This document shows positions 1 to 4,620 of a stretch of 5,198 nucleotides of DNA, piece after piece (position 1 is the first letter of the stretch; every line of letters starts with the position of its first letter). This DNA comes from Candidatus Omnitrophota bacterium (GTDB taxonomy: Bacteria; Omnitrophota; Koll11; Duberdicusellales; 4484-171): the NCBI GenBank assembly GCA_021735115.1, contig JAIPHQ010000063.1:1-5198 (forward strand), given 5' to 3'. The position numbers and the translations under genes are program-made. The notes below the pieces were generated by a model. That model was not told where the DNA came from. It ran no database searches and saw nothing but the letters and a program-made list of their open reading frames with translations.

Positions 1-235
1 TTGTTATAGCTTCAATAGTTGGTTCAACAAAATCTTGATTAACAGCAATTTCCAGTTTTACTTTTTTCAAAAGGCACACTTCACTCACTACACCTCTATA
101 AGTTTCAGTATAGCCTTTTTGCTGGCCACACCCTAAGGCATTAGTCACAGTCATCTTGTGAACTCCCGCCTCAAATAAAGCTTTTTTAACATCTGGTAAT
201 TTATGTGGCTGAATCATGGCAATTATTAATTTCAT
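1..235 (-). CDS. glnK: PII-family nitrogen regulatory protein, 3' end outside window
   Basis: PII proteins are trimeric sensors of ATP/ADP and 2-oxoglutarate; next to amtB they normally plug the ammonium channel with their T-loop. I read 78 codons from ATG at 235; about 34 residues of the usual ~112 lie beyond base 1. The start [20 protein letters not shown] and the T-loop segment [14 protein letters not shown] (residues 35-48) are diagnostic. Gln39 and Lys58, which contact 2-oxoglutarate in known PII structures, are present. The residue aligned with uridylylated Tyr51 of E. coli GlnB/GlnK is Ser51, and position 49, the phosphoserine of cyanobacterial PII, is Val. Position 9 is Gln, usually Lys or Arg. 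A G-rich Shine-Dalgarno, AAGGGGG, lies at 244-250. The gene starts 21 bases after the amtB stop, so the two are co-transcribed. The symbol glnK rests on the amtB linkage; glnB is equally defensible. The family call is firm. Confidence 0.93.
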
Positions 236-256: not shown

Positions 257-1594
257 TTATTCATTAGTAAATATCTGAAAACCAGCATAAGATTCCATGC
301 CGTGTTCTCCGATGTCAAGTCCTTTAAACTCTTCTTCTCTACTGACTCGCAAGCCAATAGTTCTATCAATTAGTTTAAATATTACCCCCATCACAATTAA
401 AATAAAAGCTGCCACCGAAAAAGCTCCCAAAGCTTGAATTCCCAACAACTTTAAACCACCACCATAAAACAATCCATCGCTAGAAAGGCCTAGAGCTTTT
501 TGGCCAAATAAACCAATAGCCAAAGCCCCCCAGATTCCGTTAAAACCATGGACAGGAGCTGCTCCTACAGGATCATCTACTCCTAACTTATCTAGAAGAA
601 AAACCCCTAAAACAACTACTACCCCGCCAATAGCCCCAATCAAAATAGCTGCCCAAGGCTCTACATAAGCGCAACCAGCCGTAATCGCAACTAAACCAGC
701 TAAGGCACCATTCATTGCCATCGATAAATCTGGTTTACCAGCAGTTTTCCATATAGTTAACATTGCTAAAATTCCTCCCGCTGCAGCTGCTAAATTAGTA
801 TTCATTGCAACTCTAGCTATTAGACTTCCATCACCGACACCTAAGGTAGAACCAGGATTAAACCCAAACCAACCAAACCAAAGAATAAACACCCCTAAAG
901 ATGCTAAGGGAATATTGTGTCCGGCTATCATTTTTGGTTTACCATCTGCGCCATATTTTCCAATTCTCGGTTTTAAAATAATCGTTCCAATCAGCGCCGC
1001 AAATCCTCCTACGGTATGAACTACAGTTGAACCAGCAAAATCAGCAAAATTTAATTGAGCTAACCAGCCTCCACCCCAAATCCAATGGCCCACAATTGGA
1101 TAAATAAAAGCAGAAATTATAAATGAATAGATAAGATAACCAACAAATTTCATCCTTTCGGCCATACCTCCGGCTACAATTGTTGCTGCTGCTCCACAAA
1201 AAGCAGCTTGAAAAAGCCAAAAAGCAAATATAGGCAAACCGCCTACACTTTCAGCTCCATTCATAAACCAACCACTTAAGCCAAGAAAACTATTGCCTTT
1301 TCCAAACATGATTGCATAGCCAAATAAGAAAAAACCCAAAGAAGCCATACAAAAATCAAGAAAGTTTTTAGTTAAAATATTGCAAGTATTTTTAGAACGA
1401 ATAAAACCTGCCTCCACCATTCCAAAACCAGCTTGCATGAAAAACACCAAAAATGCTGCAACCAAGACCCAAAGAGTATCAACTCCTATTGATAACGCCG
1501 CTTGAGAAGAAGTCTCTGCAAATGCCAAAGGAGTTATAAAAGAAAAAACTAAGATAAAATTAAATATTTTTTTAAGTAATTTTAGAATATTCAT
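257..1594 (-). CDS. amtB: Ammonium transporter AmtB (Amt/Mep/Rh family)
   Basis: Trimeric inner-membrane channel that recruits ammonium and conducts it into the cytoplasm. The 445-residue product has a signal-peptide-like start (hydrophobic residues 10-25, cleavage site AFA/E after 26) and then about eleven hydrophobic segments. The family landmarks are present: the conserved Asp of ADFAGSTVVH (D185, E. coli D160), the twin pore histidines H193 and H349 (E. coli H168 and H318), the gate region FQAAF around F132, and GWFGFNPGS with F245 and S249 (E. coli F215 and S219). The cytoplasmic tail, residues 417-438, carries the EEEFKGLDIGEHG motif typical of Amt proteins regulated by PII. ATG at 1594 follows an AGGAGG site (1600-1605) that overlaps the stop codon of the upstream porin, suggesting translational coupling. 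PII follows 21 bases downstream. No key residue appears to be missing. Confidence 0.98.
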   Translation of the reverse strand: MNILKLLKKIFNFILVFSFITPLAFAETSSQAALSIGVDTLWVLVAAFLVFFMQAGFGMVEAGFIRSKNTCNILTKNFLDFCMASLGFFLFGYAIMFGKGNSFLGLSGWFMNGAESVGGLPIFAFWLFQAAFCGAAATIVAGGMAERMKFVGYLIYSFIISAFIYPIVGHWIWGGGWLAQLNFADFAGSTVVHTVGGFAALIGTIILKPRIGKYGADGKPKMIAGHNIPLASLGVFILWFGWFGFNPGSTLGVGDGSLIARVAMNTNLAAAAGGILAMLTIWKTAGKPDLSMAMNGALAGLVAITAGCAYVEPWAAILIGAIGGVVVVLGVFLLDKLGVDDPVGAAPVHGFNGIWGALAIGLFGQKALGLSSDGLFYGGGLKLLGIQALGAFSVAAFILIVMGVIFKLIDRTIGLRVSREEEFKGLDIGEHGMESYAGFQIFTNE

Positions 1595-1603
1595 AATAAC
1601 CTC

Positions 1604-2383
1604 CTAAAAGTTATAAGCTAAAGTTATTCCTGTCCAAAACTCTTCATTCCCACTGTTGATATCATCTTTGTGATTAATAGTAAAATTAACACTTGGAGTA
1701 AGCGATAATTTAGCTAAGGAATAAGTTGTTGAAAGTGAAAATTCAGTAGCATATAAAAATTCTGGTTTTAGATCTGCAACACCGTCATTACCCCAATTAG
1801 TAACAGCAAAATCTAAAGTTTGGCCTTTTTGAACCACCGCTAAAAAATCTAAAGGCAGATTATAACCAAATCCCCAACTGTAATACCAGCCTTGATCTGG
1901 GCCGCCTGAAGTTACTTTAAAATCATAAGCAGCAAAAATATTAAAAGATAAATCTGGTAAAAAAGGAAGCGGGCCGTCAATTGCCAACCAAGGTTCTGAT
2001 ACATCTGAATCTAAAGAAGTATTGGGAAAATTAAAATAAGTAAACCCTAAAGATAAATTTAGAGCCCCAACATCTTTTGAAAATATTAAACTATAATCAA
2101 TCTCCTCTGCGTCCTGATGTCCACCTGATACAGGAATTGACCCCCAAATGTTTAGGCCAAAATCAACACCTCCAATTAACTCAGGAAACAATATATCTAT
2201 CTCCGGCTGATAGGCTGCTCTATTATTAGATAATAGATCCTGGCCCCTCCAGATATACCTTGATACATAACTTTGCGAAACAGAAAATTCAATTTCCTGG
2301 TCACTAGCAAAACAATGACCTAGAATTATAGTGAAATTAATTAAACTGATAAATAAAAATAAATTAATAGTTTTTTTAATCAT
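1604..2383 (-). CDS. TorF/Gcw_chp-like outer-membrane beta-barrel porin
   Basis: Predicted 259-residue outer-membrane protein. I chose ATG at 2383, not the in-frame ATG at 2413, because a perfect AAAGGAGG site (2388-2395) sits 4 bases before it and would lie inside the coding region of the longer form. Residues 1-26 form a signal peptide (MIKK, hydrophobic core, cleavage HCFA/SDQ). The mature part starts with SVSQSYVSRYIWRGQ (34-48), which resembles the conserved N-terminal motif of the TorF/Gcw_chp family of putative porins. Alternating polar/hydrophobic strands with aromatic girdles follow, and the protein ends in ...TLAYNF, a terminal Phe typical of BAM substrates. The TAG stop is only 9 bases from amtB and overlaps its ribosome-binding site. 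A role in passage of ammonium or small nitrogen compounds across the outer membrane is inferred from position only; the substrate of this family is unknown to me. Confidence 0.8.
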   Translation of the reverse strand: MIKKTINLFLFISLINFTIILGHCFASDQEIEFSVSQSYVSRYIWRGQDLLSNNRAAYQPEIDILFPELIGGVDFGLNIWGSIPVSGGHQDAEEIDYSLIFSKDVGALNLSLGFTYFNFPNTSLDSDVSEPWLAIDGPLPFLPDLSFNIFAAYDFKVTSGGPDQGWYYSWGFGYNLPLDFLAVVQKGQTLDFAVTNWGNDGVADLKPEFLYATEFSLSTTYSLAKLSLTPSVNFTINHKDDINSGNEEFWTGITLAYNF

Positions 2384-2420: not shown

Positions 2421-2470
2421 AAAAAGCCCTTGACAAACGTGCTCGCTAAATGGCTCGCTTATCAAAGGCT
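2421..2470 (-). terminator. Intrinsic terminator/attenuator in the porin-amtB-PII leader
   Basis: On the minus strand, AGCCTTTGATAAGCG (2470-2456) pairs with CGTTTGTCAAGGGCT (2439-2425). This gives a continuous 15-bp stem with three G-U pairs, a 16-base loop (2455-2440), and a T run starting at 2425 (TTTTT, C, T, A, TTTT). The G/C pairs are concentrated at the base next to the T run, as expected for a rho-independent terminator. It lies 85 bases after the GAF-ANTAR stop and 37 bases before the porin ATG. It would therefore end the glnA/antar transcript, or block the downstream operon unless overridden. The loop region contains a direct repeat GCGAGC (2453-2458 and 2441-2446), which I cannot interpret. 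The hairpin itself is seen in the sequence; its conditional use is inferred. Confidence 0.85.
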
Positions 2471-2496
2471 TCTTTGCCGTCTAAACTACTCTGTTT
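2467..2496 (-). promoter_or_regulatory. Candidate ANTAR dual-hexaloop antiterminator RNA
   Basis: Two adjacent small hairpins lie just before the terminator. P1 is AAAC (2496-2493), loop AGAGTA (2492-2487), GTTT (2486-2483). A 4-base linker, AGAC, follows. P2 is GGC (2478-2476), loop AAAGAA (2475-2470), GCC (2469-2467). Both loops are six bases with A at position 1 and G at position 4, the conserved features of known ANTAR-protein RNA targets (EutV-type). The P2 3' arm GCC is also part of the terminator's 5' arm, so P2 and the full terminator cannot form together. The stems are short (4 and 3 bp), so protein stabilisation would be needed and chance occurrence is possible. The preceding gene encodes an ANTAR protein, which supports the assignment. 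Confidence 0.65.
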
Positions 2497-2554: not shown

Positions 2555-3247
2555 CTATATTTCGTCCGCTAAAATAATAGCTTCAGCGATATTTTTCATC
2601 GGCACTCTTTTGTCCATACTAGAACTTCTTATTATTTTATAAGCTTGCTCTTCATTTAAATTCTTTTGGCGCATAAGAATTCCTTTTGCTTTTTCTATTT
2701 TTTTACGCGCCTCAAGCTCTTCTTCAATAACTTTAGTCTTTACCATCAACTCTGTATTTTCAATGGCAACCGCTGCCTGATTAGCTACTGTGCTTAATAA
2801 ATCAGCCTCTGGTTTTGTAAAATTATGTTTTACAGTCGTGTAACAATTTACTACACCAATCACTTTCTTTTTAACCATCATTGGCACACTAATCATCGAG
2901 ACTAATTTTTCTTTTTTAGCTAATTCTTTTTCTTTGTAACGATTATCTTCAATTACGTTAGAAATAATTAAAGGCTTTTTTTCTCTAGCTACTAAACCAA
3001 CTATGCCTTCACCGTATTTGATACTGCGCTCTTTAAGATAGGCCTTACTTAACGCTTGAGTTGCCCTGATTCGTAATTCCTTCTTTTTTGAATCAAGAAG
3101 CCAAAGCGCACAAATTTTTGCCTTCATCATACTAGCAGTTAAGGTAACTATCAGCTTTAACACATCTTCTAAGTAAAGATCGCTAGTTATGGCTTTACTG
3201 ATTTTATTTAAAATGTTAATGTAATCTTTATACGGTGTTTTCGGCAT
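2555..3247 (-). CDS. GAF-ANTAR one-component transcription antiterminator
   Basis: Predicted soluble regulator of 230 residues. Residues about 10-165 form a GAF sensor domain (EGIVGLVAREKKPLIISNV at 80-98, then SVPMMVKKKVIGVVNCY). Residues about 165-185 are a charged helical linker. Residues about 172-228 form an ANTAR RNA-binding domain with its typical IEKAKGILM (184-192) and the helical pattern AYKIIRSSSMDKRVPMKNIAEAII (split as 202-213 and 214-225). There is no receiver domain, so it is not a classical response regulator; the GAF domain probably takes the signal directly. ANTAR proteins bind twin-hexaloop leader RNAs and prevent termination (AmiR, NasR, EutV; NitR beside clostridial glnA). 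It lies 38 bases after glnA, with AAAGGA as ribosome-binding site, and just before the terminator at 2421-2470, its likely target. The GAF ligand cannot be read from the sequence. Confidence 0.92.
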   Translation of the reverse strand: MPKTPYKDYINILNKISKAITSDLYLEDVLKLIVTLTASMMKAKICALWLLDSKKKELRIRATQALSKAYLKERSIKYGEGIVGLVAREKKPLIISNVIEDNRYKEKELAKKEKLVSMISVPMMVKKKVIGVVNCYTTVKHNFTKPEADLLSTVANQAAVAIENTELMVKTKVIEEELEARKKIEKAKGILMRQKNLNEEQAYKIIRSSSMDKRVPMKNIAEAIILADEI

Positions 3248-3281: not shown

Positions 3282-3297
3282 CCAACTATAGAGTTGG
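3282..3297 (-). other. Hairpin spanning the glnA stop codon
   Basis: The inverted repeat CCAACT-CTAT-AGTTGG has a perfect 6-bp stem and a 4-base loop. It overlaps the last codons and TAG stop of glnA. No T run follows, so it is not an intrinsic terminator. It could affect mRNA processing or stability between glnA and the GAF-ANTAR gene, or be fortuitous. Confidence 0.45.
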
Positions 3298-4620
3298 TAA
3301 ATAAGCATCTAGTTCATAACCATGTACTTGTTTTCTATAATTATCCCATTCCACTTTTTTTGCGTAAATTAAATTTTGATAAATATGTTCACCTAAAGTT
3401 TCTCTTAATAAATTACTTTTTTCAGCAATTTCAATTGCTTCAATTAAGCTGCCAGGTAAGCACTTAACTCCCAGCCTATTCATTTCCTTACTATCTAAAT
3501 TATACACATCTTTCTCTAAAGGTTCAACTGCTGAATAGTTTTCTTCTATCCCTTTTAATCCTGCTGCCAACATGGAAGCAGAAGCTAAATAAGGGTTGCA
3601 GGCCGGATCCGGAGAACGAAATTCAATCCGAGTTGCCTTTTCTTTACCCGGTTTATACATCGGCACTCTAACTAAAGCGCTCCTGTTTCTTCTGGCCCAA
3701 CAAACATAAACCGGTGCCTCATAACCGGGAACCAACCTTTTATAGGAATTAACCCATTGGTTGCAAATAAAAGTTAGCTCAGGAGCATGCTTTAGGATAC
3801 CGGCAATATAGGCTTTAGCTTCTTTTGATAGCTGATACTTATCTTCTGGATCAAAAAAAGCATTTTTCTCACCTTTAAAAAGCGATTGATGAACATGCAT
3901 TCCGCTTCCATTTTGGCCATAAATCGGTTTTGGCATAAAGGTTGCATAGTAGCCATGCTTCTGAGCAATTTCTTTAACTACCATCCGGTAAAGCATCATC
4001 GTATCTGCCATTGAAAGTGCTTCTTGGTAACGCAGGTCAATTTCATGTTGGGAAGAAGCTACCTCATGATGCGAATATTCAACATGAATTCCCATCTGTT
4101 CTAAGGTTAAAATTATTTCTCTTCTTACTTCATTTCCAGAATCTAAAGTAGTTATATCAAAATAACCACCTTCATCTAAGATTTCTGTTCCTTTTTCATT
4201 ACGGAAGATGAAAAATTCAAGCTCCGGACCAATATAAAAATCATAACCTTTTGCTTTTGCTTTCTCTAAAACAGTTTTTAAGATATAGCGGCTATCCCCT
4301 TCATAAGGAGTTTGATCTGGCTTTAAGATATCACAAAGCATTCCAGCTACTGCTTTTTCTTTCGGCCGATAAGGCAAAACCCTAAAAGTTGTCGGATCAG
4401 GCATCGCTATCATATCTGATTCATCAATTCTAGCAAAACCTTTAATTGATGAGCCGTCAAAACCCATCCCTTCTTCTAAAGCAGACTCAAGCTCTTCTTT
4501 GGTTACAGCAAAACCTTTCATTTGGCCGGTAATATCCGCAAACCAGAGCCGAATAAATTTTACATCTTTTTCTTTAACTGTTTTTAAAACATCTTTTTTA
4601 GTAAAATTTTTATTATTCAT
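3286..4620 (-). CDS. glnA: Glutamine synthetase type I (GSI-alpha)
   Basis: Dodecameric cytoplasmic enzyme joining glutamate and ammonia to glutamine with ATP. At 444 residues it has the length of the GSI-alpha subtype (about 440, against about 470 for GSI-beta). Active-site signatures are all present: the Asp loop FDGSSIKGF (54-62), metal ligands in GPELEFF (E133, E135), EVASSQHEID (E186, E193), GSGMHVHQS (H242), the NSYKRLVPGYEAP flap (291-303), and RIEFRSPDP (E333, R335). GFARIDESDM (61-70) carries the Arg (R64) that corresponds to R62 of Bacillus GSI-alpha, linked to glutamine feedback inhibition. The NLYDLP adenylylation site of GSI-beta is replaced by DVYNLDSKEM, so GlnE-type modification is unlikely. 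ATG at 4620 follows GGAG (4627-4630). A 135-base leader separates it from the small gene upstream; the GAF-ANTAR gene follows 38 bases after its stop. Confidence 0.98.
   Translation of the reverse strand: MNNKNFTKKDVLKTVKEKDVKFIRLWFADITGQMKGFAVTKEELESALEEGMGFDGSSIKGFARIDESDMIAMPDPTTFRVLPYRPKEKAVAGMLCDILKPDQTPYEGDSRYILKTVLEKAKAKGYDFYIGPELEFFIFRNEKGTEILDEGGYFDITTLDSGNEVRREIILTLEQMGIHVEYSHHEVASSQHEIDLRYQEALSMADTMMLYRMVVKEIAQKHGYYATFMPKPIYGQNGSGMHVHQSLFKGEKNAFFDPEDKYQLSKEAKAYIAGILKHAPELTFICNQWVNSYKRLVPGYEAPVYVCWARRNRSALVRVPMYKPGKEKATRIEFRSPDPACNPYLASASMLAAGLKGIEENYSAVEPLEKDVYNLDSKEMNRLGVKCLPGSLIEAIEIAEKSNLLRETLGEHIYQNLIYAKKVEWDNYRKQVHGYELDAYLPTL

What the first reader, a model, noticed from the sequence alone, without database searches (positions are those of the whole stretch)
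2421..2496. Putative ANTAR twin-hexaloop switch controlling a porin-amtB-PII operon
Hairpin P1 (loop AGAGUA, 2492-2487) and hairpin P2 (loop AAAGAA, 2475-2470) are 4 bases apart, and both loops have A1 and G4. The 3' arm of P2 (2469-2467) is the G/C-rich base of a 15-bp terminator ending in a T run at 2425-2421. The preceding gene encodes a GAF-ANTAR protein. Known ANTAR proteins (EutV, NasR, AmiR, clostridial NitR) act on such leaders. Extending this to an outer-membrane porin plus ammonium channel plus PII would give the regulator a cis target that couples ammonium import to its signal. The sequence shows the hairpins and the mutual exclusion; the regulation is inferred. The weak points are the short stems.
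Basis: partly seen in the sequence, partly recalled or inferred. Interest (0 to 1): 0.78.

Follow-up and report, generated by a model that had tools for sequence, protein, structure and literature searches.

The report
RNA switch guarding ammonium-uptake genes
In what is probably an uncultured Omnitrophota bacterium, the messenger RNA leader of a porin, ammonium-channel and PII operon carries two small hairpins and a terminator that the RNA-binding protein encoded just upstream most likely uses to switch ammonium-uptake genes on; it is a convincing new case of a known kind of switch.

Summary
On the minus strand, 2496-2483 is hairpin P1 (loop AGAGUA) and 2478-2467 is hairpin P2 (loop AAAGAA). 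P2 overlaps a strong terminator (2474-2421). The preceding gene encodes a GAF-ANTAR protein. A covariance model built without the window and relative L002 still finds the site, E 4.3e-8.
Relatives conserve it. In 10 of 12 relatives with amtB within 3 kb after the ANTAR gene, an A1/G4 hexaloop overlapping a terminator lies between. Twin hexaloop plus terminator occurs in 16 of 81 leaders, mean 0.05 in shuffles. In 48 chosen sites stems covary and G4 is invariant. Of 66 Omnitrophota genomes with a model hit, 63 encode ANTAR (211 of 285 overall). Of 37 sites examined, 30 precede ammonium, glutamine or glutamate genes or heads of such operons.
The switch type is known, and Ramesh 2012 listed sites before P-II and ammonium-transporter genes. 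Apparently new: this phylum, a GAF regulator, porins and, in relatives only, added terminators with one hexaloop each. Binding, read-through and signal are untested.

The parts
2483..2496 (-). P1 hairpin: 4-bp stem AAAC/GUUU, hexaloop AGAGUA (2492-2487), A1 and G4 present
   Evidence: covariance models
2479..2482 (-). 4-base linker between P1 and P2
2467..2478 (-). P2 hairpin: 3-bp stem GGC/GCC, hexaloop AAAGAA (2475-2470), A1 and G4 present; overlaps the terminator base
2421..2474 (-). Intrinsic terminator, long stem running into a U tract; uses most of P2's loop and its 3' arm as part of its own 5' arm
2555..3247 (-). GAF-ANTAR protein, 230 aa, the presumed antiterminator
   Evidence: Pfam GAF and ANTAR over cut-off; alignment to EutV
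3286..4620 (-). glnA, glutamine synthetase, upstream in the same direction
   Evidence: Pfam
1604..2383 (-). Porin: predicted signal helix plus 12-stranded outer-membrane barrel (start at 2383 chosen because of an AGGAGG just upstream; the mechanical ORF starts at 2413)
   Evidence: model pLDDT 90.2; Foldseek matches to PDB porins; no Pfam family
257..1594 (-). amtB ammonium channel
   Evidence: Pfam PF00909, TIGR00836 over cut-off
2..235 (-). PII signal protein gene, cut off by the window end
   Evidence: Pfam PF00543

Best explanation
The leader is an ANTAR-dependent transcription attenuator. Without the active regulator, the nascent RNA folds the long terminator and RNA polymerase stops before the porin gene. 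When the GAF-ANTAR protein encoded just upstream is in its RNA-binding state, it binds the hexaloops through G4, holds P2 closed, denies the terminator its base, and polymerase reads on into porin-amtB-PII. The GAF domain presumably reports nitrogen status (ligand unknown), so outer-membrane entry, inner-membrane ammonium transport and PII signalling would be raised together. Shown: the hairpins, the terminator overlap, conservation, covariation, gene neighbourhoods and co-occurrence with ANTAR. Inferred: binding by this protein, read-through, the signal, and that nitrogen limitation is the activating condition.
For: A model that held neither the window nor L002 finds the site, E 4.3e-8. 10 of 12 relatives with amtB within 3 kb downstream of the ANTAR gene have an A1/G4 hexaloop-terminator between. 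16 of 81 leaders carry twin plus terminator, shuffled mean 0.05. In 48 aligned sites four of seven pairs change on both sides, 69 such cells, 94% of cells paired; 0 of 500 shuffles reach the values for cells paired, cells changed on both sides and covariation score. 65 of 69 matches in 81 sources run in the ANTAR gene's direction. Co-occurrence: 63 of 66 hit genomes encode ANTAR against 148 of the other 219, Fisher p 8e-7. 30 of 37 examined sites precede ammonium, glutamine or glutamate genes or the porin or sigma-like genes heading such operons. EutV's RNA contacts R142, K143, K147, K149, E160, Y164, R168, M172, R175 are identical in the window protein (alignment, residue list, compared by hand). 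The unaided fold is the terminator (-29.1); forcing P1+P2 costs about 11 kcal/mol; P2 is in the minimum-energy fold at the six chain ends examined from 2466 to 2430 and gone at 2425.
Against: No binding or transcription data. The stems are short and not unusual in energy; P1 is absent from the minimum-energy fold at four of the eight chain ends examined (2460 to 2435). Two EutV contact residues differ (N173 to D, R177 to P); changing N173, R175 and R177 together abolished EutV binding. Only 66 of 285 genomes gave an R1 hit although 211 encode ANTAR, and with R2 7 of 75 hit genomes had no ANTAR match. L029 and L060 have ANTAR then amtB without a unit. No TTGAC-type promoter was found just before the window's P1. 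The alignment sets were chosen by me, which inflates pairing.
Confidence: 0.9

Rival explanations
1. An ordinary terminator that ends the glnA-ANTAR transcript; the hexaloops are chance, and the porin operon has its own promoter.
For: The terminator is strong and lies after a gene; the hairpins alone are energetically unremarkable.
Against: The hexaloops are conserved and covary, which a plain terminator does not need; the window site is found by a model that did not contain it; a strong site can lie on another contig than the ANTAR gene (G126: site on C50 before gltB, ANTAR on C38).
Confidence: 0.05
2. A real twin-hexaloop attenuator, but read by another RNA-binding protein or a second ANTAR protein encoded elsewhere in the genome.
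For: Some genomes carry two ANTAR matches, and no whole genome is held for the window.
Against: Most of the 211 ANTAR genomes list one match; the unit recurs right after this GAF-ANTAR gene and the protein keeps most RNA-contact residues.
Confidence: 0.05

Closest known systems
EutV attenuators of Enterococcus faecalis eut genes (Ramesh 2012 PMC3369931; Walshe 2022 PMC8934654)
   Same: Two hexaloops with A1 and G4, short stems, limited linker, P2 overlapping an intrinsic terminator; nine of eleven ANTAR contact residues identical.
   Different: EutV has a REC domain switched by phosphorylation; here a GAF domain. Other genes, other phylum.
Predicted ANTAR nitrogen regulons, e.g. Desulfotomaculum acetoxidans (13 sites, six units) and Pelobacter carbinolicus (Ramesh 2012, section 10 read)
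   Same: Twin-hexaloop attenuators before nitrogen genes; across genomes the paper names P-II, ammonium transporters, glutamine and glutamate synthase enzymes.
   Different: Other organisms; porins and sigma-like genes are not among the targets named in the section read (Table S2 not seen); a passage of its introduction says no PAS- or GAF-ANTAR protein had then been characterised.
NasR of Klebsiella and AmiR of Pseudomonas (passages of Ramesh 2012 and recall)
   Same: ANTAR antitermination in nitrogen metabolism.
   Different: Nitrate and amide systems with other sensor arrangements.
GnfR of Geobacter (recalled as an ANTAR response regulator of nitrogen fixation; the original paper was not found in the library)
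   Same: ANTAR control of nitrogen genes in a Gram-negative anaerobe (recalled).
   Different: Two-component protein, nitrogen-fixation targets (recalled).

Membership tests
ANTAR dual-hexaloop attenuator | Two hairpins of at least three base pairs with six-base loops | tested here: met
ANTAR dual-hexaloop attenuator | A at loop position 1 and G at position 4 in both loops | tested here: met
   window: both; in 48 chosen aligned sites G4 invariant, A1 90% or more in both loops
ANTAR dual-hexaloop attenuator | P2 overlaps an intrinsic terminator in the right direction | tested here: met
ANTAR dual-hexaloop attenuator | Limited linker between the hairpins | tested here: met
   4 bases in the window beyond a 4-bp P1; 3-7 bases between minimal 3-bp stems in the aligned sites
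ANTAR dual-hexaloop attenuator | Organism encodes an ANTAR protein with RNA-contact residues | tested here: met
   PF03861 69 bits, cut-off 27.3; 9 of 11 EutV contacts identical
ANTAR dual-hexaloop attenuator | Protein binds the RNA and increases read-through | not testable with these tools
   needs the bench
Any curated Rfam family | Match of the leader to a curated RNA family | tested here: not met
   three matches in the whole window at E up to 10, none in the leader and none near its gathering score
Outer-membrane porin | Signal peptide and beta barrel | tested here: met
   predicted helix 2-23 and twelve long strands, pLDDT 90.2; top PDB matches include VhGalP, OmpG, Tsx, NanC. Transport not testable

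The most novel reading that the evidence does not exclude
Omnitrophota use GAF-ANTAR antitermination as a main nitrogen-assimilation control, co-controlling several distinct porin groups and a small sigma-factor-like gene with amtB, PII, GS and gltB. In many relatives the twin unit is followed, typically 12-16 bases after its terminator stem, by a second terminator carrying a single hexaloop; P2 of the first unit would then serve as the recruitment hairpin for the next, a hop-along relay that bears on why two hairpins are needed. The window itself has only the single twin unit.
Probability: 0.4. Interest if true: 0.66.

Novelty: new member of a known kind. Interest (0 to 1): 0.52.

Why it matters
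It gives a specific, testable regulator-RNA pair for ammonium uptake in a large uncultured phylum; no paper in the library searched holds both words ANTAR and Omnitrophota. It ties an outer-membrane porin to ammonium transport. The single-hexaloop terminators in relatives bear on a question Walshe 2022 leaves open: how far single hexaloops serve ANTAR proteins (discussion read).

Tried and rejected
Rfam gave only chance matches. A switch before the window's own glnA was sought: 4712-4678 scores 12.1 bits, E 0.031, with a P1 loop that departs from six bases; not claimed. L002, L007 and L010 have model hits before glnA; the stricter script found twin plus terminator there in 2 of 9 glnA-ANTAR loci. 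The only NCBIfam match for the porin was far below cut-off. Model hits L093, L097, L099 and L100 show no terminator and L108 no clear target: five of 37. L098 (carB) and L081 have no terminator by the script. The 16 of 81 includes L006, whose partner hairpin is the loop of the first terminator, L010, whose unit is 850 bases downstream, and L054 and L055 with 23-base spacing.

Rows dropped: one search took 37 of the 41 matches (left out: L105, already known as the L007 amtB site, and the weak second matches in L109, L123 and L127). itself took 35 of loci L081-L129; L082-L092 and L094-L096 were left out as sites already seen in earlier loci. The 48-site alignment left out L093, L097, L098, L099, L100, L101 and L102. 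The 50 sites were picked by hand and leave out those (except L102, present as L067) and the deltaproteobacterial sites. The GnfR and NitR precedents could not be read.

Full report
WHAT IS THERE. On its minus strand the window carries glnA (4620-3286), a GAF-ANTAR gene (3247-2555), a leader, a porin gene, amtB (1594-257) and the start of a PII gene. The leader reads P1 AAAC-AGAGUA-GUUU (2496-2483), four bases, P2 GGC-AAAGAA-GCC (2478-2467), then a long stem and U tract. The closest proteins that carry an organism name are from Candidatus Omnitrophica (P0011, P0012, 83% identity), so the window most likely comes from that phylum; no whole genome is held for it.

IS IT MORE THAN CHANCE. The two small hairpins alone are energetically unremarkable. 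Comparison decides. 80 loci with relatives of the GAF-ANTAR gene were fetched. In up to 900 bases after the gene (81 leaders with the window, some cut short by contig ends), twin hexaloop plus terminator occurs in 16, against a mean of 0.05 and a maximum of 1 in 20 sets of dinucleotide shuffles; hexaloop-terminator units number 35 against a mean of 1.25 and a maximum of 4. A test that does not choose by motif: among 12 of these loci with amtB on the same strand within 3 kb after the ANTAR gene, 10 have an A1/G4 hexaloop overlapping a terminator in between; L029 and L060 do not. A covariance model R1 from 18 sites gives 69 matches at E up to 5 in 81 sources, 65 of them in the direction of the ANTAR gene. 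The window was in R1, so R3 was built from 45 sites without the window and the two L002 sites: it finds 2497-2465 at 35.4 bits, E 4.3e-8, the next window match having 12.1 bits. Some R3 sites had been found with R1, so the independence is not perfect. The held-out L002 sites score 39.8 and 31.6 bits.

CONSERVATION. In 48 aligned sites (18 picked by eye or script, 30 of the 37 examined R1 hits) G4 is invariant in both loops and A1 is 90% or more. P1's outer pair of the three-pair core is A-U, C-G, U-A, G-U, G-C or U-G and is paired in 48 of 48; P2's two outer pairs switch between G-C and A-U; the inner pairs never vary and say nothing. Cells paired, cells changed on both sides and the covariation score exceed all 500 shuffles; the counts of changed pairs and of pair types do not. 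My choice of sites inflates the paired percentage.

REGULON. R1 in 14 genomes behind my loci: 13 of 14 have a match at E up to 0.1, one to four sites each. Across 285 genomes of the phylum, 66 have a match at E up to 0.01, where about three would be expected from the (rough) E-values. ANTAR is found in 211 of 285; of the 66, 63 have ANTAR, Fisher p 8e-7. With the wider model R2, 75 of 285 match and 68 of these have ANTAR, p 6e-5. I compared the lists by eye. Incomplete genomes may explain the exceptions; not tested. Of 37 sites examined (best-scoring, not a random sample), 30 precede genes or operons of ammonium, glutamine or glutamate metabolism: amtB, PII, glnA, GS type III, gltB, carA, carB, glutamine-dependent NAD synthase, another glutamine amidotransferase, or the porin and sigma-like genes that head such operons or stand beside PII. 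Two are looser (a hybrid-cluster protein, a flavoprotein), and five do not support it (names from Pfam, from similarity, and for the second L107 site from its place between two genes). In 18 larger regions, chosen because they hold a model hit, a porin gene lies directly before amtB in 11; the porins fall into at least three groups by the queries used.

THE PROTEINS. The ANTAR domain is clear (69 bits, cut-off 27.3). Against EutV (PDB 6WSH, named so; alignment) the residues reported to touch RNA (Walshe 2022, sections on contacts and mutagenesis) are identical in nine of eleven: R181, K182, K186, K188, E199, Y203, R207, M211 and R214 of the window protein; N173 is D212 and R177 is P216. I matched the numbering by hand with an offset of two. 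The GAF half resembles those of PtsP and NifA-type regulators; that such domains can report glutamine or 2-oxoglutarate is recalled, not tested. The porin has no Pfam family; its predicted fold is a 12-stranded barrel (pLDDT 90.2) with PDB matches such as VhGalP, OmpG, Tsx and NanC. That it passes ammonium or any nitrogen compound is a guess from position.

MECHANISM. The unaided leader folds into the terminator (-29.1 kcal/mol); forcing P1 and P2 costs about 11 kcal/mol; of eight chain ends examined, P2 is in the minimum-energy fold at the six from 2466 to 2430 and gone at 2425 and 2421, while P1 is missing at four of the eight. This fits protein-stabilised antitermination. In 25 of 50 hand-picked sites a TTGAC-17/18-TA promoter lies close before P1, in most ending about ten bases before it, so P1 would be near the very 5' end of the message; at the window, L001, L002 (porin site) and L007 (amtB site) none was found, so the porin operon there is probably fed by read-through from glnA-ANTAR (inferred). 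In 22 of 50 sites a further hexaloop-terminator follows, one stem mismatch allowed, against 1.2 expected from shuffles; in 13 of the 22 its loop starts 12-16 bases after the first stem (counting a listed alternative in three). Of 16 such sites looked at closely, 11 show no second recruitment hairpin before the added hexaloop and five show only weak candidates. The window has no such tandem unit.

KNOWN OR NEW. The switch type and its use before P-II, ammonium-transporter and glutamine and glutamate synthase genes are in Ramesh 2012 (section 10 read in full; its Table S2 was not seen). No paper in the library holds both ANTAR and Omnitrophota as whole words, and the large Omnitrophota genome study PMC10066038 has no whole-word occurrence of ANTAR in the main text held. 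Five papers hold ANTAR, porin and antitermination; I saw only that listing. The verdict is a new member of a known kind, with added features in its relatives.

Noticed in passing
L081:1690-2199; homologs in L003, L009, L022, L107, L110, L112, L114, L128: A small sigma-factor-like gene (weak sigma-70 region 2, GerE or region 4 HTH) often heads the porin-amtB operon and often follows its own twin switch.
   Followed up: partly
L002 2836-2938; L006 1126-1260; L127 1501-1581: Tandem arrays: a twin unit, its terminator, then one or two further terminators each with one hexaloop; five of the later hairpins (L013, L018, L107, L115, L119) share an A-C mismatch in the stem.
   Followed up: partly
window about 4689-4670 (minus) and L002 about 635-654: A short element CAAAGCAGTAA..TTACCAA upstream of glnA is shared by the window and L002; in L002 it lies after the glnA switch, which the window seems to lack.
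   Followed up: partly
L067:8031 (same site as L102), L098:374, L122:1501, L116:1501, L129:1501, L104:1372: Glutamine-using enzymes (CarA, CarB, NAD synthase, GATase) also follow model hits, which is odd for a pure nitrogen-starvation regulon and may hint at glutamine as the signal.
   Followed up: no
L033:1457, L036:5745, L046:7744: Relatives in records titled Deltaproteobacteria have twin units with changed stems (TAC/GTA, GAC/GTC); the L046 one precedes a gene with a glutamate-synthase domain.
   Followed up: partly
L022:8789-10663: An amino-acid permease fused to a PII domain follows a hexaloop-terminator.
   Followed up: no
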